Shown: positions 1,359 through 10,607 of the stretch, piece after piece
Position numbering within the stretch: the first letter of the stretch is position 1
How the letters are laid out: every line of letters starts with the position of its first letter
Assembly (NCBI GenBank): GCA_017437165.1
Contig: JAFSBS010000445.1
Location: 1-10,608, forward strand
Length of the DNA stretch: 10,608 nt
Direction of reading: 5' to 3'
From: Clostridia bacterium
Lineage (GTDB): Bacteria > Bacillota > Clostridia > Oscillospirales > Acutalibacteraceae
The notes under the pieces: model-generated
What the model was told of the DNA's origin: nothing
The model's database searches: none
Seen by the model: the letters and a program-made list of their open reading frames with translations, nothing else
Translations under genes and position numbers: made by a program

Positions 1359-2724
1359 TTTTCTCACTCACTCTTACAGATAAAATATTTTTACTTTCTT
1401 TGGTTTTTGCGTTTTTCTTATTTACACCAAAACCAAAAACCCACACGACTCCGTTATCATCTGCGATAACGGGAATTACATCTCTTTTTTCTTTAGAAAC
1501 ATTATCTTCAATAAAAAGTTTTTTTAGTGTTTTAGTAACATTTCTTTTATTAAGAGTTATTTTATCGCCTTCCTGACGAGTTCTTAAAACCAAATTACCA
1601 CATATTGTATCACAATCTATTAAATTATCCAATAGTAAATCTTTAATTTTTTGTGAAATATTTTCCAATATTTCGGTTTCAATTGTATATTGTCCGAACT
1701 GACAATTAAATTCTAATGAATCAAAAACTATTCTTTCCCGGTTTTTAACAACTTTTTTTTCAGAATCAAAAATTTTTAAAACACCATTTTTTGTCTGTGC
1801 GTAACAATGTTTATATAGTTGGATTTTTGTGTTGTCACGAGTACATTCAAGTAATGATTTAATTTTTTTACTATCAGGTTTTTCTCCACAAAAATCATTT
1901 ATCGCTTTATAAATAACTCGATTTTTTATTGATATATGAAACGAATTGAGAATTTCTACACTATAAGTATTTTTTTCAATTTCTGCTTTTTTAAAAGCTT
2001 CAAGCGTAGATTTTTCAAAAAAATCTGCATCATCTCTTACACTTTCAGCGAAGCGGGAAAACGCTTCTTCAACATTATTGTTTAACGTTTTCAATTCAGG
2101 AATGACAAGATGACGTATTTTATTTCTTGTATAATCGTCGCTTAAATTGGTACTGTCTGTAACAAACGATAATGAATTTTCTTTGCAATAATCCTCAATT
2201 TCTTCACGTGTACAAAAAATAAGCGGTCTTATAATATTTTCTCGTATGGGCGGGATTCCTTTTGCACCATTTAAAGAAGAACCTCGGGTAATATTAAAAA
2301 TAATTGTTTCCATATTATCATTACTGTTGTGAGCAGTAGCAATAACAGAATTTTCAGTATTTGCAAGAGATTTAAAGAAATCGTAACGAATTCTTCTCCC
2401 TGCTTCTTCAACAGTTTCGCCTGTTTTTTCAGCCTCTTTAATGCAATCAGCATTAAGTAGTTCAAACTGAATATTAAGTTTATTTGAAAAATCGTTTGAA
2501 AACAGCGCATCTTTTTCTGCTTCTTCACCACGGATTCCGTGATTTATATGAGCAGCAACAATCGTCAGATTAAGTTCTTCTTTAATTGAGTTAAGAAAGT
2601 GCAAAAGACAAACTGAATCTGCACCACCCGAAAGACCTACTATAACCCTGTCGCCTTTTTTGAGCATTGAATATTTTTCAATGGCTTTTTTTGCTTTTTC
2701 ATATACCACTAAAGTATTATTCAT
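1336..2724 (-). CDS. tilS: tRNA(Ile)-lysidine synthetase TilS
   Basis: Essential ATP-dependent enzyme that converts C34 of the CAU-anticodon tRNA-Ile to lysidine, so that it reads AUA and is charged with Ile. The roughly 462-residue product has the N-type PP-loop SGGADS (residues 32-37) in [15 protein letters not shown]. It then has [22 protein letters not shown], the HNSNDNMET segment, and the lysidine-synthetase signature [16 protein letters not shown]. The C-terminal tRNA-binding domain is recognisable by [11 protein letters not shown] and the [18 protein letters not shown] stretch. The frame also offers a GTG three bases upstream at 2727. ATG 2724 is preferred because a GGAG at 2735-2732 lies 7 nt from it. 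The start lies inside the last codons of dnaB (8-nt overlap) and the end overlaps hpt, so translation is probably coupled on both sides. Confidence 0.96.
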
Positions 2725-4093
2725 CACGATACTCCAATGTCGAAAAACGAGTAAACTGACTATCCCAATGAAGTGTTACTGTTTCAGTCGGACCATGACG
2801 GTTTTTAGCTACATTCACTTCTGCTTTTGACATATCTACTTCTTCTGCATTCTGCTTATCATTTTTGTAATAACCTTCTCTGTAAAGCATCATAACTATA
2901 TCCGCGTCCTGTTCAATAGAACCGGAATCACGAAGGTCAGAAAGTGCAGGTTTTTTTGTAGAACTACCATTCTTTTCAGGACCACGTGAAAGCTGACAAC
3001 AAACAACAACAGGAATCTTGAGGTCTTTTGCAAGAAGTTTTAAACTACGTGTAATTTCAGTAACTTCCTGAACACGATTACCCTTAATATTTTTATCTGC
3101 CGTCTGCATAAGACCTAAATAGTCGATAATAATACAGTCAACATCTTTCATTCTTCTGATTTTTGCTTTGATTTCGGGAACTGTAATTGTGGAAGTATCA
3201 TCAAAATAAAGTTCACATCTTGATGATAAAAGACTTGTTGCTTCTGCAAGTCGTTGCCACTCCGCTTCACTTATATTACCCGAACGGAATTTATTACTCT
3301 CAACTCTTGCTTCGGTTGAAAGCACGCGTGATGCCAACTGTTCGTTTGACATCTCGAGTGAGAAGAAAACAACCTTTTTACCGGTCATACCAACGTTGCG
3401 GGCAATATTAAGTGCAAAACTCGTTTTACCCATAGCAGGACGAGCGCCAATCAAAACAAGGTCGGAACGGTTGAGACCGGAAATAATTTCATCAATTTTT
3501 GAAAAACCTGTTGGAATACCTTTGAAATCATCCGCGTTTTCAGAAGTGATATTTGAAAGAGTTGGATAAACTTCGTTTGTGATAACATCACTTAGTCTTT
3601 GAATTGAACTTGTTGATTTACCTTTACGAAGGTTATAAATACTTTGTTCAGCAGACTCTAACAGCACATCTGCATCTACTCCGGTAGAAGCAGAATCTAT
3701 CGTATCCTGAGAAATATCAATAAGTCTTCTTACGTAGAAATTGTCCTGAACAATTTTACAATAGTTCTCAACATTGGCAGTTGAAGGTACTGCTTGTGCT
3801 AATTGTGCTAAATAGTTTTTACCGGTTTCTTCGTCAAAAACACCTTTTTCTTTTAATCTTTCTAAAATTACAAGAGCATCTATTCTTGAACCCAATGTAT
3901 CAAGAGTTACCATTACATTAAAAATTTCTTTATGTTGCGGATAATAGAATGCATCAGGGTTAACTATAGAAATAACACGGCTTAAACATTCAGGGTCAAT
4001 AAGAACAGAACCTAAAATTGCCTGTTCTGCTGTAAAATTTGATTTTTCTTTATAAATTTCAGCATTAGTAGTTGTTAAATCTTTTTCTGCCAT
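2717..4093 (-). CDS. dnaB: replicative DNA helicase (DnaB family)
   Basis: Hexameric 5'-3' helicase that unwinds the chromosome at the replication fork and contacts primase (called DnaC in B. subtilis). At 458 residues it is normal length. The N-terminal helical domain (about 18-125) begins NFTAEQAILGSVL and contains the HKEIFNVM segment. After a linker, the RecA-like domain has Walker A GARPAMGKT (residues 216-224), FFSLEMSNEQLASR, Walker B IIIDYLGLM (Asp at 324), the CCQLSRGPE segment, and DLRDSGSIEQDAD with the downstream MLYRE typical of the family. RHGPTETVTLHW near the C-terminus also fits. No intein or insertion is present. It starts at ATG 4093, with GGTG upstream, 33 nt after rplI. 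The rplI-dnaB pair is conserved in Firmicutes. Confidence 0.97.
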   Translation of the reverse strand: MAEKDLTTTNAEIYKEKSNFTAEQAILGSVLIDPECLSRVISIVNPDAFYYPQHKEIFNVMVTLDTLGSRIDALVILERLKEKGVFDEETGKNYLAQLAQAVPSTANVENYCKIVQDNFYVRRLIDISQDTIDSASTGVDADVLLESAEQSIYNLRKGKSTSSIQRLSDVITNEVYPTLSNITSENADDFKGIPTGFSKIDEIISGLNRSDLVLIGARPAMGKTSFALNIARNVGMTGKKVVFFSLEMSNEQLASRVLSTEARVESNKFRSGNISEAEWQRLAEATSLLSSRCELYFDDTSTITVPEIKAKIRRMKDVDCIIIDYLGLMQTADKNIKGNRVQEVTEITRSLKLLAKDLKIPVVVCCQLSRGPEKNGSSTKKPALSDLRDSGSIEQDADIVMMLYREGYYKNDKQNAEEVDMSKAEVNVAKNRHGPTETVTLHWDSQFTRFSTLEYRDE

Positions 4094-4578: not shown

Positions 4579-6108
4579 CTACCTTTCTTCGTAATATTCA
4601 TCTATTGCACTCTTTAATTTTTCGAGCGCTAATTCAAATGACACATCTTTGAGTTGACAGGCAGCCATTGTACTATGACCACCGCCACCTAATTTTTCGG
4701 TGATAAGCTGAACATTTTCTTCACCTAAAGAACGTGCCGAAATATTAACTAAATCATCTTTGATTTTTGAAATTACAAATGACGCTTTAACGCCACTTAT
4801 ATTGAGCATATCATCTGCCGCTTTTGCTGTAACAACTCTTAAATTTTCAACATCTTTATCCGCTATTGAAATCATACAATCTCTGTAATTAACAGCACTT
4901 TTTATAATTTCATTTTCACCATTTATCTGTTCCTGATTAACAGCAAAAAGTTTTTTAACTTCAACTGTATTTGCACCATTCTGTCTTAAATATGCTGCCG
5001 CTTCAAATGTTCTCCTTGAAGTTTTCAGAACATAATCCTTTGTGTCAAGTACGATACCCGACAAAAGTGCGGTTGCAATTTCTTGTGGTAAATCTATTTT
5101 TGTTGTCGAATATTCAAGCAATTCTGAAACCATTTCGCAAGTAGAAGACGAAAGCGGTAAATGATAAAAAATCTCTGCATCATCAATATAATCCGCCGTT
5201 CTTCTGTGGTGGTCTATAATAATTTTACTGCCACCATCGTTATAAACCGGTTCACTCTCTAAAAGAGAAACAACATGAGTATCTACAACAATAACTAAAG
5301 TTTTACTGTCGCAGAATCGTTTACCATCATCATGGTCTATAAATTTGTCATAACCGTTTTTGGTGAGATATTTTATAAGCGGTTTTGCAAGGGATTGTTT
5401 TTCATCCACAACCACCTTTGCATTCACTCCGTTTTGTCGGCAGAAATATTCCATACCGACTGCGGCCCCGACAGAATCATTATCTGAAAATCTATGTCCC
5501 ATAATAAGTACCTTATTATGTTTTTTTATTTCATTAAGTATATTCGCAGAAGTCTGTCTCGGGGAAACTTTGGAGTTATCATTAAGAAGATTTGCCATAC
5601 CGCCAAAGAATGTATAATTATCATCCATAAATACGGCACATTGGTCCCCGCCGCGACCTAACGCTAATTCTAAAGAGCGTTTTGCCTGATTTTCACAATC
5701 AAGAACATTTTCGCCCATACCTACACCTATCGAAAGCGTTGCGTTAATTTCCGTGTTTTCGTATTTATACGCACGTATATCATTCAGAACTTCAAACTTT
5801 TCGTTGCACAATTCATCGAGACTGCGTTTTTCACCGATTACAAGGAATCTGCCGTTTGCAGTCTTTTTGAAAACGACATTGTGACCGTCAAGCCATTTTT
5901 CTAATATACTTTCTATACCACTTGTAATAAGTGCAAATTTACTGTCAGAATATTTTCTGTAAAGTTCATCTATGTTATCAACAAGAATGTGCATAACATA
6001 AGGTCTTGTTAAATGGTATTCTTTCTCAGTTGTTTTAAAGTATGTATCATCAAGAAAATACATAGCAATAAGTGGCATATTTTTATCGTGTACTTTTGTT
6101 GTGAACAC
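4579..6108 (-). CDS. GdpP C-terminal fragment: degenerate GGDEF plus DHH/DHHA1 phosphodiesterase
   Basis: Open part of the interrupted gdpP after the TAA, bounded here by a GTG at 6108-6106 (509 residues). The first 30 residues are the end of the PAS domain. The degenerate GGDEF domain then includes KKTANGRFLVIGE and ALGRGGDQCAVF, and the complete DHH/DHHA1 module holds all metal-binding and catalytic motifs. It carries no membrane segment. The start is doubtful: neither this GTG nor the ATG at 6078 has a Shine-Dalgarno, so efficient independent translation is not evident. If made, it would be a soluble c-di-AMP phosphodiesterase lacking its PAS/membrane control. The DHH part of the family is known to be active without the membrane region. 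Confidence 0.7.
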   Translation of the reverse strand: MFTTKVHDKNMPLIAMYFLDDTYFKTTEKEYHLTRPYVMHILVDNIDELYRKYSDSKFALITSGIESILEKWLDGHNVVFKKTANGRFLVIGEKRSLDELCNEKFEVLNDIRAYKYENTEINATLSIGVGMGENVLDCENQAKRSLELALGRGGDQCAVFMDDNYTFFGGMANLLNDNSKVSPRQTSANILNEIKKHNKVLIMGHRFSDNDSVGAAVGMEYFCRQNGVNAKVVVDEKQSLAKPLIKYLTKNGYDKFIDHDDGKRFCDSKTLVIVVDTHVVSLLESEPVYNDGGSKIIIDHHRRTADYIDDAEIFYHLPLSSSTCEMVSELLEYSTTKIDLPQEIATALLSGIVLDTKDYVLKTSRRTFEAAAYLRQNGANTVEVKKLFAVNQEQINGENEIIKSAVNYRDCMISIADKDVENLRVVTAKAADDMLNISGVKASFVISKIKDDLVNISARSLGEENVQLITEKLGGGGHSTMAACQLKDVSFELALEKLKSAIDEYYEER

Positions 6109-6150
6109 AGTATAAAAACGGTCATTATAATATGCAGGAACAGATTCTTC

Positions 6151-6540
6151 TTATCCAAAATTATCAAATGAGAAATTTTTGAAAACATCAGTTATTTTAA
6201 ATTTTTCCGAATCTTCATCTGATAATATATCTGAAAGGAAAAGCTTGTTATACCACACAACTCCACCATACGAATTGCACACTACTGCAGGAAGCGGAAA
6301 CGAATCTATATTTTTGATTTCTCCCCGCAGAGATTTATTTATCTGTTTAACAAGTTTTTTAGTTGAAGATATACTGTAAGCAGAATAAATCACACTTAAA
6401 ATAAGTACAACTGCAAAACCTAAAAAAGAAGCAACTGCACCTTTTTTATCTATAAAAATAAATCCTATACCGACAAGCAAAAATATCCCAGATGATAAAA
6501 ACCCCATAGGATTCTGATACAACCAACTTTTAAATCGCAT
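6151..6540 (-). CDS. GdpP N-terminal fragment: two membrane helices and start of PAS domain
   Basis: If the TAA at 6153-6151 is obeyed, this is what the ribosome makes from the good start: a 129-residue membrane protein. It has two hydrophobic segments (PMGFLSSGIFLLVGIGFIFI and AVASFLGFAVVLILSVIYS) separated by a short DKKG turn. A linker helix (SISSTKKLVKQINKSLRGEI) and the first half of a PAS fold (FPLPAVVCNSYGGVVWYNKLF) follow. The PAS fold is cut before its last strands, so stable folding and ligand (haem) binding are doubtful. It has no catalytic part. It lies 39 nt downstream of rnj. Confidence 0.7.
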   Translation of the reverse strand: MRFKSWLYQNPMGFLSSGIFLLVGIGFIFIDKKGAVASFLGFAVVLILSVIYSAYSISSTKKLVKQINKSLRGEIKNIDSFPLPAVVCNSYGGVVWYNKLFLSDILSDEDSEKFKITDVFKNFSFDNFG

Positions 6541-6547
6541 AAACTTT

Positions 6548-6553
6548 CTCCTT
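6548..6553 (-). promoter_or_regulatory. strong ribosome-binding site of gdpP
   Basis: AAGGAG lies 7 nt upstream of ATG 6540-6538. It fixes the start of the interrupted gdpP and shows that initiation at the 5' end is not degraded, in contrast to the fragment downstream of the TAA. Confidence 0.8.
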
Positions 6554-6554
6554 A

Positions 6555-6575
6555 TCAGAGTAAAATCAACTCTGA
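6555..6575 (-). other. inverted repeat (hairpin) between rnj and gdpP
   Basis: On the minus strand TCAGAGT and ACTCTGA form a perfect 7-bp stem around a 7-nt loop (TGATTTT). It lies entirely in the 39-nt rnj-gdpP gap and ends one base before the AAGGAG of gdpP. There is no T-run after it, so it is not an intrinsic terminator. It could shield the 3' end of rnj, mark a processing site, or tune gdpP translation. Its function is inferred from position only. Confidence 0.5.
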
Positions 6576-6579
6576 AAAT

Positions 6580-8535
6580 TTAATAAACTTCCATTATGAT
6601 TGGTAAAATCATCGGACTACGCTTTGTTCTTTCGTACATAAGCCTTGAAACTTCGTCACGAAGTTTATTTGTCATTTGATTCAAATCGAAATTATATGGC
6701 GGGAAACTGTTAATTACATTCATTGAAAGTGATACTGCTTCACTCATTAAAAGTTCCGCTTCTTTAACGTAAACAAAACCTTTTGAAACAATATCAGGAC
6801 CTGTAACAAGTTCACCGGATGCGGCATCAACAGTTGCGGCAATAATTATAATACCATCTGTACCAAGATGTTGTCTTTCACGCATAACTCTTGTACCGAC
6901 ATCACCCACACCATAACCATCAACATAAACTTTACCGTGAGTTACCGTACCTGAAACCGCTATATTTGTTTCACTGACAGAAATCTCATAACCATTGTCG
7001 CCAATAATAATATTGTTATGAGGAACACCTATGCTTTCAGCAAGTTTTGCGTGGTATCTCAAATGTTTCTGCTCACCGTGAACAGGAATAAGATACTTTG
7101 GTTTAACAAGCGAAAGCATAATTTTAAGTTCTTCCTGACAAGCGTGACCGGAAACGTGAACATCATACATTTTCTCGTAAACTACCTGCGCACCAAGACA
7201 GAGCAAATCATTTATTACTTTATAAACAGTCTTTTCATTACCCGGAATAGGTCTTGCCGAAATAATTACACAATCGTTGTAACCGATTTCGACTTTTCGG
7301 TGGTTTTTAGATGCCATTCTTGAAAGTGCAGACATCGCTTCACCCTGACTACCGGTTGTTATAATAACAAGTTGTTCATCATTGTAACGCTTGATTTCAT
7401 CAATACCAATTAAAGTACCTTCAGGAATATGAACATAACCGAGTTCACTTGCAATTGAAGTAACATTTTCAAGACTTCTGCCAGAAAGTGCAACTTTTCT
7501 GCCTGTTTTAGAAGCAATATCTATAATTTGTTGAACACGGTGAATATTGGATGCAAATGTTGCAATTATAATTCTTCTGTTACCCGCTTTAGAAAAAAGA
7601 CTCTGGAATGTTTCACCAACTTTGCTTTCACTTTGTGTGTAACCAGGTTGTTCTGCATTTGTTGAATCTGAAAGCAGACAAAGAACACCCTCATTTCCGA
7701 GTTCTGCAAAACGTGAAAGATTTATAATTTCACCATCAATAGGCGTAGTATCAATTTTAAAGTCACCGGTCTGAATAATTGTACCTGCCCCACATTTAAT
7801 AGCAAGTGCTACTGCACCGGGAATTGAGTGATTAACATGAATAAACTCAACATTGAAGTCACCTAAAGATATCTCTTCACCCGGATTTATAACCTTAACA
7901 TCAACCGTTTTGTCTAATTTATGTTCAGAAAGTTTGCCCATAATAAGACCGGCAGTAAGAAGCGTTGCATAAACCGGCACAGTTATTTTTTTAAGAAGAT
8001 AACAAAGAGCACCTATATGGTCTTCATGACCGTGAGTAATTAAAATACCTTTAATTTTATCAGCATTTCTTTCAACAAAAGAAAAATCAGGAATAACAAA
8101 GTCAACACCCAACTGGTCAGATTCGGGGAATGCTAACCCACAGTCAACTATGAGCATACTTTTTTCGTACTCATATACGGTCATATTTTTACCGACTTCG
8201 TTAAGACCACCCAAAAAAGAAATTTTTACAGGATTTGTTTTAACCGGTGGTTTGATTTTTCCGTAACGATTACCCTTTTTATTCTGTTCATGATTTTTTG
8301 AAGTTTTACTTTTTGTTGTCTGATTATTTTTCATATCAACTGTTTGTTCTTTCGGCATTTTACCACCGCCTTGCTTTTTACTTTTAAAGCCTTTTTGTTT
8401 GTGTTGTTTCTTTTGCGTTTTGCTTTGAGTTTTATTTTCAGTTTTATTATATTTTTTATTTTTCTTATTGTTTTTACCACTCTTTTTATTATGTTTTTCA
8501 TTAGTGGCAAAATCTTTATTTTTTTCGTTTTCCAT
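6580..8535 (-). CDS. rnj: ribonuclease J with Lys/Asn-rich N-terminal extension
   Basis: Metallo-beta-lactamase/beta-CASP ribonuclease with 5'-3' exonuclease and endonuclease activity, central to mRNA decay and rRNA maturation in Firmicutes. It has 651 residues against about 555 for B. subtilis RNase J1. The first ~95 are low-complexity and basic (KKSGKNNKKNKKYNK and similar) with no predicted fold. The core starts at VKISFLGGLNEVGKNM (about residue 103). Zinc ligands HGHEDH are at 168-173, the LLSDSTN segment is near 290, the beta-CASP domain follows with RIIIATFASNIHRVQQI, and HVSGHA (460-465) plus PKYLIPVHGE complete the active site. The C-terminal domain ends LPIIMEVY. The start is ATG 8535 with GGAGAG just upstream. 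It is first in the transcription unit, after a consensus promoter and a leader of about 116 nt. Only one paralogue is visible here, so J1 versus J2 cannot be settled. Confidence 0.96.
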   Translation of the reverse strand: MENEKNKDFATNEKHNKKSGKNNKKNKKYNKTENKTQSKTQKKQHKQKGFKSKKQGGGKMPKEQTVDMKNNQTTKSKTSKNHEQNKKGNRYGKIKPPVKTNPVKISFLGGLNEVGKNMTVYEYEKSMLIVDCGLAFPESDQLGVDFVIPDFSFVERNADKIKGILITHGHEDHIGALCYLLKKITVPVYATLLTAGLIMGKLSEHKLDKTVDVKVINPGEEISLGDFNVEFIHVNHSIPGAVALAIKCGAGTIIQTGDFKIDTTPIDGEIINLSRFAELGNEGVLCLLSDSTNAEQPGYTQSESKVGETFQSLFSKAGNRRIIIATFASNIHRVQQIIDIASKTGRKVALSGRSLENVTSIASELGYVHIPEGTLIGIDEIKRYNDEQLVIITTGSQGEAMSALSRMASKNHRKVEIGYNDCVIISARPIPGNEKTVYKVINDLLCLGAQVVYEKMYDVHVSGHACQEELKIMLSLVKPKYLIPVHGEQKHLRYHAKLAESIGVPHNNIIIGDNGYEISVSETNIAVSGTVTHGKVYVDGYGVGDVGTRVMRERQHLGTDGIIIIAATVDAASGELVTGPDIVSKGFVYVKEAELLMSEAVSLSMNVINSFPPYNFDLNQMTNKLRDEVSRLMYERTKRSPMILPIIMEVY

Positions 8536-8657: not shown

Positions 8658-8686
8658 ATTATACTTTTTTTAAGAGTCAATGTCAA
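8658..8686 (-). promoter_or_regulatory. consensus sigma-70/sigma-A promoter for the rnj operon
   Basis: TTGACA (8686-8681), a 17-nt spacer and TATAAT (8663-8658) match the vegetative promoter consensus at every position. The -35 element overlaps the last codons of the preceding gene, whose stop is at 8672-8670. The predicted start is near 8651, giving an untranslated leader of about 116 nt (8651-8536) before rnj. The non-coding gap 8536-8669 is otherwise AT-rich and contains only this promoter, the leader hairpin and the ribosome-binding site. It is the only strong promoter I see, so it may serve the genes down to ftsH. Confidence 0.8.
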
Positions 8687-10607
8687 TACTGATAAGTTTT
8701 TCTATATCTACACAAAGTTCTTCTGCAAGTTCCATAGTAACTGCCTCAGTTATAATTTTAAGACTTTTGCCATTACTCTCACTACGAACCTTTGCCACGC
8801 CTTTTTCATTTTTTAAAGTAACCCCTCCACTTTCATCGGTTTTAAAATCATTGCAGAGCAACTCTTTTGAAATAAGCGCAGGTGAAATATCAATTTCCAT
8901 AACTTTTTTAGCAACGTAAAATTCAGGTAATTCATCCACAAGTGTATTAAGCGTCTTTCTGCTTTCGTTTATTATTTTTAATAAGCGGAACATTAAAAGC
9001 ACCGCATCACGTGACCACAACTGATTTATTGAAACATCATTATTTTTGCTATTTTCATATCTGTTTGATTCTTCAGAGATTCTGTAAGTTTTTCTGCCCA
9101 AAGAATTGCCGAGCGTGGTTATAATCTGCGGTGCATCCCACGGCAAAGCAACATCATTACCATTTTTCATTTCGTTATGGGCTACTACCGTCAGAATTTT
9201 TTCGTGAGAGAAACTCCCGGAGTTTTCAACAACTGTAATTTTTGTACCACTATTATTTATTTTCACAATAAAATCCTCTTTTTCCTCTGAAACGCCTAAT
9301 CTCTCAAATGCTTTTTTTACACAAAAAGAAATCTCTTCATTTCCGCAAAAAAATAAAACTCCGGGAAGTGAAATTTTAATATCTTCAAACTGTCTTATAA
9401 TCTCATTCAGATACATTTCACGAAGAGAATTTATTACACTTACACTCTGACAATCAGCACAAGATGAGCGATTAAATTCGCCACGGTTTAAAATCATTTC
9501 GATTTTTCTTGTTTTATCACGCGAAAGTGCTACACCGCCCTTTTCACAAAGAGATAGCGAAACACCATTTTCACCACCACTTATAAATATTGCTATATCT
9601 GTATCGCAAAATGCAGAATAATAAAAAATCTGTGAAAAGAAACACTCTCCGAAATCAAATGTTTTTGCCCCTACACTTATAAGACCACCGAGCAGACCGC
9701 ATTTCAGCGCCAATGAATTTGTTTCGCCATCAATGCCGATACCCACTCTTATCCCGTCAGAAAGTGTGCCGATTGCAGAACCTAAACGTGCAGTTTTTTC
9801 CGGCGTTAATTCAACTCCAAAATCACCGAAGATAATGTTATTTATCTGTAAAGTTGTATTTACAGGTTGTGAGTATCTGACATTTTCTGTAACAGTTACA
9901 CCATTTTCAATCGTTTTATTAGGCCATATCATAACACCATTCGCAATAACACAGTCTTCGCCTATTATTACATCTTGCCCCAACACTGCGTTTTCAAAAA
10001 CAGATGCACCTTTTTTTACAGAAACTCCGTCACAGAGAATCGCACCGGTTACACTGCATCCGGAAGAAACATAGACATTTTTTAAAAGAATGCTCTCTCG
10101 TATTTTACTCCCCTTTGAAACAAGCGAACCTTCACCGATAACAGCAAAAGGACCTATAACTGCACCACTTTCTACCTGCACATTTTTGCCGAAATATACA
10201 GGCGGAACAATTACGAAATTCCCTGTAGGAACACTCGACTCTGTAAATACATTTTCTGCTATAAATGGTGGTTTTTTATTTGTTTTACCACCGATTATAT
10301 CAAATTGGACTTTTTTGAAATTTTCTGTAGTTTCAATTTCACACCAATAATCATCACTTAAAAATGCCTGGATTTTAAAATTTTCAGAAAGCAACTTTTG
10401 AAACAAATCCTTTTTAAAATCACAAACTTTATTTTCGGGTATTTCTTTTAAAACAGATGGTTCTAAAAAATAAATTCCGCAGTTTACGATATCGCTAAAA
10501 GCTTCGCTCCAACCCGGTTTTTCTATGAACTCGATTATACGATTATTTTCATCAACATTAACGACACCATATTCACGCGGGTCATCTACTGATTTACATA
10601 TAATTGT
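8670..10607 (-). CDS. sugar-1-phosphate nucleotidyltransferase / beta-helix / phosphomannomutase-like fusion (start outside window)
   Basis: The 5' end lies beyond the right edge; 645 residues are visible, numbered here from codon 10607-10605. Residues 1-70 are the end of a nucleotidyltransferase domain (EYGVVNVD, EFIEKPGW, VNCGIYFLEPSVL), as in mannose-1-phosphate guanylyltransferase. About 100-250 are hexapeptide repeats of a left-handed beta-helix (VVPPVYFGKNVQVESGAVIG and similar, in pieces). From about 270 to the end runs a phosphomannomutase/phosphoglucomutase-like region (TPEKTARLGSAIG onward). Catalytic motifs of that region look lost. ISGGENG (342-348) stands where the Ser-His loop (TASHNP type) is expected. 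INNSGTK (450-456) replaces the DxDxDR metal loop, and SESNGKSLKI (609-618) replaces the phosphate-binding SGTEP motif. The protein may be a nucleotidyltransferase with a regulatory mutase-like tail, probably for surface-polysaccharide sugar nucleotides. The exact substrate cannot be told. A TTG at 10406 is an internal codon, not the start. Confidence 0.85.
   Translation of the reverse strand, partial: TIICKSVDDPREYGVVNVDENNRIIEFIEKPGWSEAFSDIVNCGIYFLEPSVLKEIPENKVCDFKKDLFQKLLSENFKIQAFLSDDYWCEIETTENFKKVQFDIIGGKTNKKPPFIAENVFTESSVPTGNFVIVPPVYFGKNVQVESGAVIGPFAVIGEGSLVSKGSKIRESILLKNVYVSSGCSVTGAILCDGVSVKKGASVFENAVLGQDVIIGEDCVIANGVMIWPNKTIENGVTVTENVRYSQPVNTTLQINNIIFGDFGVELTPEKTARLGSAIGTLSDGIRVGIGIDGETNSLALKCGLLGGLISVGAKTFDFGECFFSQIFYYSAFCDTDIAIFISGGENGVSLSLCEKGGVALSRDKTRKIEMILNRGEFNRSSCADCQSVSVINSLREMYLNEIIRQFEDIKISLPGVLFFCGNEEISFCVKKAFERLGVSEEKEDFIVKINNSGTKITVVENSGSFSHEKILTVVAHNEMKNGNDVALPWDAPQIITTLGNSLGRKTYRISEESNRYENSKNNDVSINQLWSRDAVLLMFRLLKIINESRKTLNTLVDELPEFYVAKKVMEIDISPALISKELLCNDFKTDESGGVTLKNEKGVAKVRSESNGKSLKIITEAVTMELAEELCVDIEKLISIDIDS

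What the first reader, a model, noticed from the sequence alone, without database searches (positions are those of the whole stretch)
6151..6153. Single clean in-frame TAA splits gdpP inside the PAS domain
Seen: codon 130 of a 653-codon frame is TAA. The same frame continues for 523 codons with full GdpP similarity and intact DHH/DHHA1 motifs. There is no frameshift, no second stop, and the upstream ribosome-binding site is strong. No Shine-Dalgarno precedes the candidate restarts GTG 6108 or ATG 6078. Known: gdpP loss-of-function mutations raise c-di-AMP and give beta-lactam tolerance in Staphylococcus aureus and other Firmicutes, so nonsense alleles are selected in some settings. Inference: a recent knockout, or a split into a membrane PAS stub and a soluble, unregulated phosphodiesterase. 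TAA is a normal terminator elsewhere in this window (rnj, rplI, dnaB, hpt), so a changed genetic code is unlikely.
Basis: partly seen in the sequence, partly recalled or inferred. Interest (0 to 1): 0.7.

Follow-up and report, generated by a model that had tools for sequence, protein, structure and literature searches.

The report
Private stop codon inside gdpP
One fragmented gut-bacterium draft genome carries a single stop codon early in a signalling-enzyme gene that is open in every relative that could be read at that place, so it is either a very recent knockout or a base-call error, and either would be ordinary.

Summary
On the - strand, frame 6540-4579 has TAA at codon 130 (6153-6151) and its natural TAG at codon 654, with no other stop. 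The downstream piece has GdpP-type GGDEF, DHH and DHHA1 domains. The stop is private: 17 of 17 genus relatives readable there are open. It has left no evolutionary trace: lineage-unique codon changes in gdpP are 6 nonsynonymous to 51 synonymous, against 3:44 for rnj and 15:40 for dnaB. TAA is a normal terminator here. The restart codons lack a Shine-Dalgarno. A near relative, G015, shows the same kind of lone stop in another gene (1 of 74 genes; here 1 of 76). Best reading: a very recent nonsense allele or a consensus error, not a functional split; only reads can tell which. In passing: another genus member, G002, has no gdpP between rnj and rplI, keeps its diadenylate cyclase and shows no PgpH-type hit, so GdpP can be lost in this genus.

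The parts
6151..6540 (-). 5' piece of gdpP: ATG 6540 to TAA; 129 aa, hydrophobic N-terminus (membrane part) and first part of the PAS region
   Evidence: collinear with full-length relatives; no Pfam/NCBIfam match alone
6151..6153 (-). private in-frame TAA, codon 130
   Evidence: frame open in 17 of 17 readable genus relatives
6548..6553 (-). Shine-Dalgarno AAGGAG of gdpP
   Evidence: -8.2 kcal/mol against anti-SD
4579..6150 (-). downstream open frame of gdpP, 523 codons plus natural TAG; longest ORF from GTG 6108 is 509 aa
5617..5988 (-). degenerate GGDEF domain of GdpP (PF24898)
5053..5514 (-). DHH domain (PF01368)
4588..4833 (-). DHHA1 domain (PF02272)
6580..8535 (-). rnj (ribonuclease J), upstream neighbour, ends in TAA
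4127..4570 (-). rplI (ribosomal protein L9), downstream neighbour, ends in TAA

Best explanation
An otherwise ordinary gdpP gene (membrane-bound c-di-AMP phosphodiesterase, in the order rnj-gdpP-rplI-dnaB) carries one private nonsense position in this draft genome. Ribosomes starting at ATG 6540 would make a 129-aa stub that lacks the catalytic DHH/DHHA1 part. Without a restart signal the downstream 523 codons would be poorly translated or not at all, so if the stop is in the cells it is a very recent loss-of-function allele that should raise c-di-AMP. About as likely, the base is a consensus error, or a minor-strain base, in a fragmented assembly, and the living population has an open gene. 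Shown: the stop, its privacy among the readable relatives, intact downstream domains, past purifying selection, no restart Shine-Dalgarno. Inferred: loss of function and raised c-di-AMP. Untested: whether the base is real.
For: Stop private: of 21 other genus genomes searched, 18 have a GdpP match; 17 of these can be read over the place and all 17 are open; one (G003) runs off its contig. Lineage-unique codon changes in gdpP are 6 nonsynonymous to 51 synonymous (2:8 before the stop, 4:43 after), comparable with rnj (3:44). No wider decay: among 76 G015 ORFs with an orthologous stretch in the G000 sample (27,728 aligned residues), gdpP is the only one broken well inside, and no frameshift was flagged; 68 of the 76 lie outside the window and none of those is broken well inside. 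The converse comparison shows the same kind of lesion in G015 (1 of 74; a DUF2201/VWA gene with a stop at residue 418 of 468 and similar sequence beyond). TAA ends genes normally: 35 of 37 TAA-ended G000 ORFs have a stop at the same place in G015, the two exceptions being the gdpP 5' piece itself and one whose G015 stretch is cut at the edge of the fetched piece. Restart codons lack a Shine-Dalgarno.
Against: No reads, second assembly or conspecific genome was available, so error and real allele are not separated. The sample is 61 of 457 contigs (289 kb, about 15% of the assembly), so the background rate is rough and rests on one event on each side. Two native starts of the window also have weak Shine-Dalgarno sites (dnaB -2.0, ftsH +0.7), so a weak site alone does not forbid a restart.
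Confidence: 0.87

Rival explanations
1. Pure consensus error: the stop is a wrong base in a highly fragmented metagenome assembly, and gdpP is intact in the organism.
For: 457 contigs for 1.93 Mb, 81% complete. The record titles of three related MAGs show depths of only 3.2-3.8 (those are relatives, the depth of this genome is unknown). No trace of relaxed selection. A similar lone clean stop in G015.
Against: The 68 compared genes outside the window show no break well inside, so the assembly is not error-ridden in coding frames; one error in this sample is still compatible.
Confidence: 0.47
2. Real, very recent loss-of-function allele, neutral or selected (for example by cell-wall stress), giving raised c-di-AMP.
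For: Loss of GdpP/Pde1 function is recurrent in Staphylococcus aureus (premature stops, PMC8764539, passages) and Streptococcus pneumoniae (PMC10576035, abstract). GdpP appears dispensable in this genus: G002 has none between rnj and rplI, keeps a DAC-domain cyclase and has no PgpH-type hit.
Against: No evidence of selection, exposure or c-di-AMP change here; error not excluded.
Confidence: 0.4
3. Functional split: a membrane PAS stub and a soluble, unregulated phosphodiesterase made by internal re-initiation.
For: The downstream piece keeps GGDEF, DHH and DHHA1 domains over their cut-offs. Soluble S. aureus GdpP residues 84-655, without the membrane part, are active in vitro (PMC3164647, passages).
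Against: No Shine-Dalgarno at GTG 6108, ATG 6078 or ATG 6063. None of 17 readable relatives has the split. The restart would begin inside the PAS region. In the 150 family matches printed (more exist), four frames are under 600 aa: this one, one shown to end with its contig, and two whose matches lie 90 and 158 bases from a contig edge.
Confidence: 0.06
4. Programmed or frequent read-through, or a changed meaning of TAA.
For: Selection on the downstream codons looks normal. The 90 bases ending in the stop fold somewhat better than shuffles (z -2.1), but this lies upstream of the stop.
Against: TAA is a regular terminator. No other gene of the G000 sample was broken well inside by a stop. The 90 bases after the stop show no structure beyond shuffles (z +0.8). 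None of the 17 readable relatives has the stop.
Confidence: 0.02
5. Decay of the whole c-di-AMP pathway in this lineage (cyclase also lost).
For: No DAC domain was found in G000 although the other 21 of 22 genus genomes have one.
Against: The two contigs flanking the cyclase locus both end there: by G015 coordinates C314 stops matching about 3.2 kb before the DAC domain, 91 bases from its own end, and C435 ends about 0.6 kb after it. The gene falls in an assembly gap, so its loss is not shown.
Confidence: 0.03

Closest known systems
GdpP / YybT / Pde1 (membrane c-di-AMP phosphodiesterase: 2 TM - PAS - degenerate GGDEF - DHH - DHHA1)
   Same: Downstream piece matches PF24898, DHH and DHHA1 and the solved chains 9n0l (cyclic-di-AMP phosphodiesterase, 3.9e-66) and 5xsi (phosphodiesterase acting on cyclic dinucleotides, 5.3e-66); full-length relatives are collinear
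   Different: Here the reading frame is cut at codon 130, so the whole protein is not encoded as one frame
Loss-of-function gdpP/pde1 alleles of S. aureus and S. pneumoniae
   Same: A premature stop in gdpP, as reported for borderline oxacillin-resistant S. aureus (PMC8764539, passages read)
   Different: Uncultured gut Oscillospiraceae-like MAG; no phenotype, no drug history, base unconfirmed
Natural absence of gdpP in G002 of the same genus
   Same: GdpP missing while the cyclase domain is kept
   Different: There the gene is absent (35 bases between rnj and rplI); here one codon is a stop and the rest is intact

Membership tests
GdpP c-di-AMP phosphodiesterase | GdpP-type degenerate GGDEF domain | tested here: met
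   PF24898 100.9 bits, cut-off 30
GdpP c-di-AMP phosphodiesterase | DHH and DHHA1 catalytic domains | tested here: met
   PF01368 83.6 bits and PF02272 44.5 bits, both over cut-off; solved GdpP homologues
GdpP c-di-AMP phosphodiesterase | N-terminal membrane segment and PAS region in the same polypeptide | tested here: not met
   The frame is cut at codon 130; the N-terminal part is encoded only as a separate 129-aa ORF
GdpP c-di-AMP phosphodiesterase | c-di-AMP hydrolysis | not testable with these tools
   needs an assay
Loss-of-function gdpP allele | premature stop before the catalytic domains | tested here: met
   stop at codon 130 of 653; DHH begins at 5514
Loss-of-function gdpP allele | change present in the organism's DNA (reads) | not testable with these tools
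   no reads held; the protein database that might show conspecific copies was off
Loss-of-function gdpP allele | open gene in the closest relatives | tested here: met
   17 of 17 readable relatives
Pseudogene under relaxed selection | excess of nonsynonymous changes on the lineage | tested here: not met
   6 nonsynonymous to 51 synonymous unique codon changes; sister branches 3:31 and 3:32

The most novel reading that the evidence does not exclude
The stop is real and is the first step of a second, independent loss of GdpP in a genus that tolerates such loss. G002 already has no gdpP between rnj and rplI, keeps its diadenylate cyclase, and none of the 22 genus genomes searched shows a PgpH-type enzyme. 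c-di-AMP turnover would then rest on the stand-alone DHH/DHHA1 (NrnA/Pde2-like) protein or on export.
Probability: 0.2. Interest if true: 0.35.

Novelty: new member of a known kind. Interest (0 to 1): 0.15.

Why it matters
As a lone unconfirmed nonsense codon in one draft genome it matters little; gdpP knockouts are well known. The wider observation, that at least one gut species of this genus appears to have no GdpP and no PgpH-type enzyme while it keeps c-di-AMP synthesis, would matter for how such bacteria keep c-di-AMP in check, and can be tested by comparative genomics.

Tried and rejected
Second split gdpP: G003 (open frame 518 aa) looked like one but its gene runs off the contig end. 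G273 (541 aa) also ends with its contig. G150 and G293 (344 and 390 aa) lie beside a contig edge by their coordinates and were not fetched.

Changed genetic code: rejected. Programmed read-through by a downstream structure: none seen. Local repeats: none of 10 bases or more in 5900-6400. Internal promoter: 9 promoter-like matches in 5900-6700 on both strands against 4.5 expected (sd 2.4); four are on the - strand, all 9 of 12 matches, two of them (sharing one first hexamer at 6251) just before the stop and two after it (5981, 5963); a simple consensus scan, not taken as evidence.

Loss of the cyclase: not shown, because the flanking contigs end at the locus.

Rows set aside: three of the four flagged G015 ORFs, whose stops in G000 lie within 16 residues of the first possible start (start probably called too far upstream), and one of the two flagged G000 ORFs, with four stops in G015, which overlaps on the other strand a longer conserved ORF. 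Hits under 70% identity or 50 residues were not counted. A cruder first pass on smaller samples, comparing all stop-to-stop frames of 100 residues or more, flagged 11 and 12 frames; most are short or on the other strand of a gene, gdpP is among them, and it was replaced rather than sorted row by row. Five ORFs whose alignment stopped short of the end were left out of the stop-codon count.

Papers: search listings and an empty one in 39; passages seen in PMC8764539 and PMC3164647; outline, abstract and start of the introduction of PMC10576035. A search for gdpP with Ruminococcaceae and c-di-AMP found 0 papers.

Full report
What is there. The window is the whole of contig C434 of a 1.93-Mb, 457-contig, 81%-complete draft genome, G000. 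On the - strand the gene order is a nucleotidyltransferase/hexapeptide/phosphomutase-like gene, rnj, gdpP, rplI, dnaB, tilS, hpt, ftsH (the name ftsH for the cut-off last ORF is recalled from its sequence, not searched). The gdpP frame 6540-4579 has 654 codons including its TAG; codon 130 is TAA.

Is it shared? One search covered 22 genomes of the genus. Besides G000, 18 of 21 have a GdpP match and three (G002, G004, G008) have only the NrnA-like paralogue. Of the 18, 17 can be read over the PAS region and all 17 are open there; the 18th (G003) runs off its contig. The two nearest, G006 and G015, are 94% and 93% identical over the 509-aa piece. The residue at the site varies across the genus.

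How old could it be? Counting codons at which G000 alone differs while G006, G015 and the outgroup G005 agree: 10 before the stop (2 nonsynonymous, 8 synonymous) and 47 after it (4 and 43). The same counts are 3:44 for rnj, 0:20 for rplI, 15:40 for dnaB and 12:28 for tilS (378 of its 463 codons aligned). The G006 and G015 branches of gdpP give 3:31 and 3:32 (both pieces summed). Against this reading: in the short 5' piece both nonsynonymous unique changes are on the G000 branch and none on the sisters, but that is two codons. I infer that the gene was under purifying selection for most of the time since these lineages parted, so the stop is either very recent or not in the organism.

Is the assembly full of breaks? 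I took 60 further contigs of G000 (with the window 289 kb, 61 of 457 contigs; C433 and C51 were chosen because they hold DHH hits, the rest by number) and 1.08 Mb of G015. Of 901 G015 ORFs (longest non-overlapping, 90 residues or more), 76 had an orthologous stretch in the sample (27,728 residues). Four were flagged for stops; in three these lie within 16 residues of the first possible start and are probably start-site calls, leaving gdpP alone. No frameshift was flagged. Eight of the 76 lie in the window, 68 outside it. In the other direction, of 232 G000 ORFs, 74 had an orthologous stretch; two were flagged, one an antisense frame, the other a clean late stop in G015 in a DUF2201/VWA gene with similar sequence beyond it. 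Lone clean stops thus occur at a comparable rate, about one in 75 genes, in both drafts, but each count rests on a single event, and gdpP was the reason for the comparison (outside the window G000 has 0 of 68).

Code, read-through, restart. Of 37 TAA-ended G000 ORFs aligned to their end, 35 have a stop at the same place in G015; 17 of 17 TGA and 7 of 7 TAG likewise. The two TAA exceptions are the gdpP 5' piece itself and an ORF on C51 whose G015 stretch ends at the edge of the fetched piece. No structure beyond shuffles follows the stop. The start of gdpP has the strongest Shine-Dalgarno of the five native starts tested; the restarts have none. dnaB (-2.0) and ftsH (+0.7) also have weak ones, so a weak site alone does not forbid initiation.

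What would it do? For S. aureus GdpP, residues 84-655 (without the membrane part) hydrolyse c-di-AMP and residues 84-301 (without DHH/DHHA1) do not (PMC3164647, passages). The 129-aa stub would therefore be inactive. A product from GTG 6108 would lack part of the PAS domain; whether it would fold is unknown. The best reading is loss of function if the stop is real.

Would the cell tolerate it? In G002 (95% complete) rplI (108-548) and rnj (584-2374) lie 35 bases apart on L187, with a phosphomutase-like gene upstream of rnj as in the window. The 509-aa query found only the NrnA-like protein elsewhere in G002; PF24898 was not searched in that genome. G002 keeps a DAC domain, and no 7TMR-HDED (PgpH) match was found in any of 22 genus genomes. 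In the wider family sample 230 of 300 genomes, and 180 of 229 of the better ones, have the GdpP-type GGDEF domain, so absence of a match is not rare, though a divergent domain could be missed. One search printed 150 match rows (more exist): 146 frames are at least 600 aa; the four shorter are G000 (523), G273 (541, ends with its contig) and G150 and G293 (matches 90 and 158 bases from a contig edge on the downstream side, not fetched). For G004 the contig ends within rnj, and for G008 no rnj or rplI was found, so their lack of gdpP is not shown.

Is the pathway gone? G000 has no DAC hit, but the flanking sequence stops at contig ends on both sides of the locus, so this is best read as an assembly gap.

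Verdict. The finding is real as sequence and ordinary as biology: a private nonsense position, error or recent knockout, in an otherwise conserved gene. I put error at 0.47 and a real recent allele at 0.40; these are judgements, not computed.

Noticed in passing
L187 (G002:C35) 108-2374: gdpP is cleanly absent between rnj and rplI (35 bases apart) in another species of the genus that keeps its diadenylate cyclase and has no PgpH-type hit.
   Followed up: partly
family search: 49 of 229 better-quality genomes of the family sample have no GdpP-type GGDEF match; which enzyme degrades c-di-AMP there is open.
   Followed up: no
L098 (G015:C22), opposite L182 3243-4647: A DUF2201/VWA-like gene of G015 has a clean stop at residue 418 of 468 with similar sequence beyond, the same kind of lesion as the finding.
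   Followed up: partly
window 2717-4093: dnaB has more nonsynonymous changes unique to this lineage (15 of 55) than in the two nearest relatives (0 of 14 and 6 of 27); recombination is one possibility.
   Followed up: no
window 8670-10607: One ORF, open at the contig edge, joins nucleotidyltransferase, hexapeptide and phosphomutase-like domains.
   Followed up: no
window 6151-6240: The RNA just before the stop folds better than most shuffles (z -2.1; 7 of 200 as good); probably chance.
   Followed up: no
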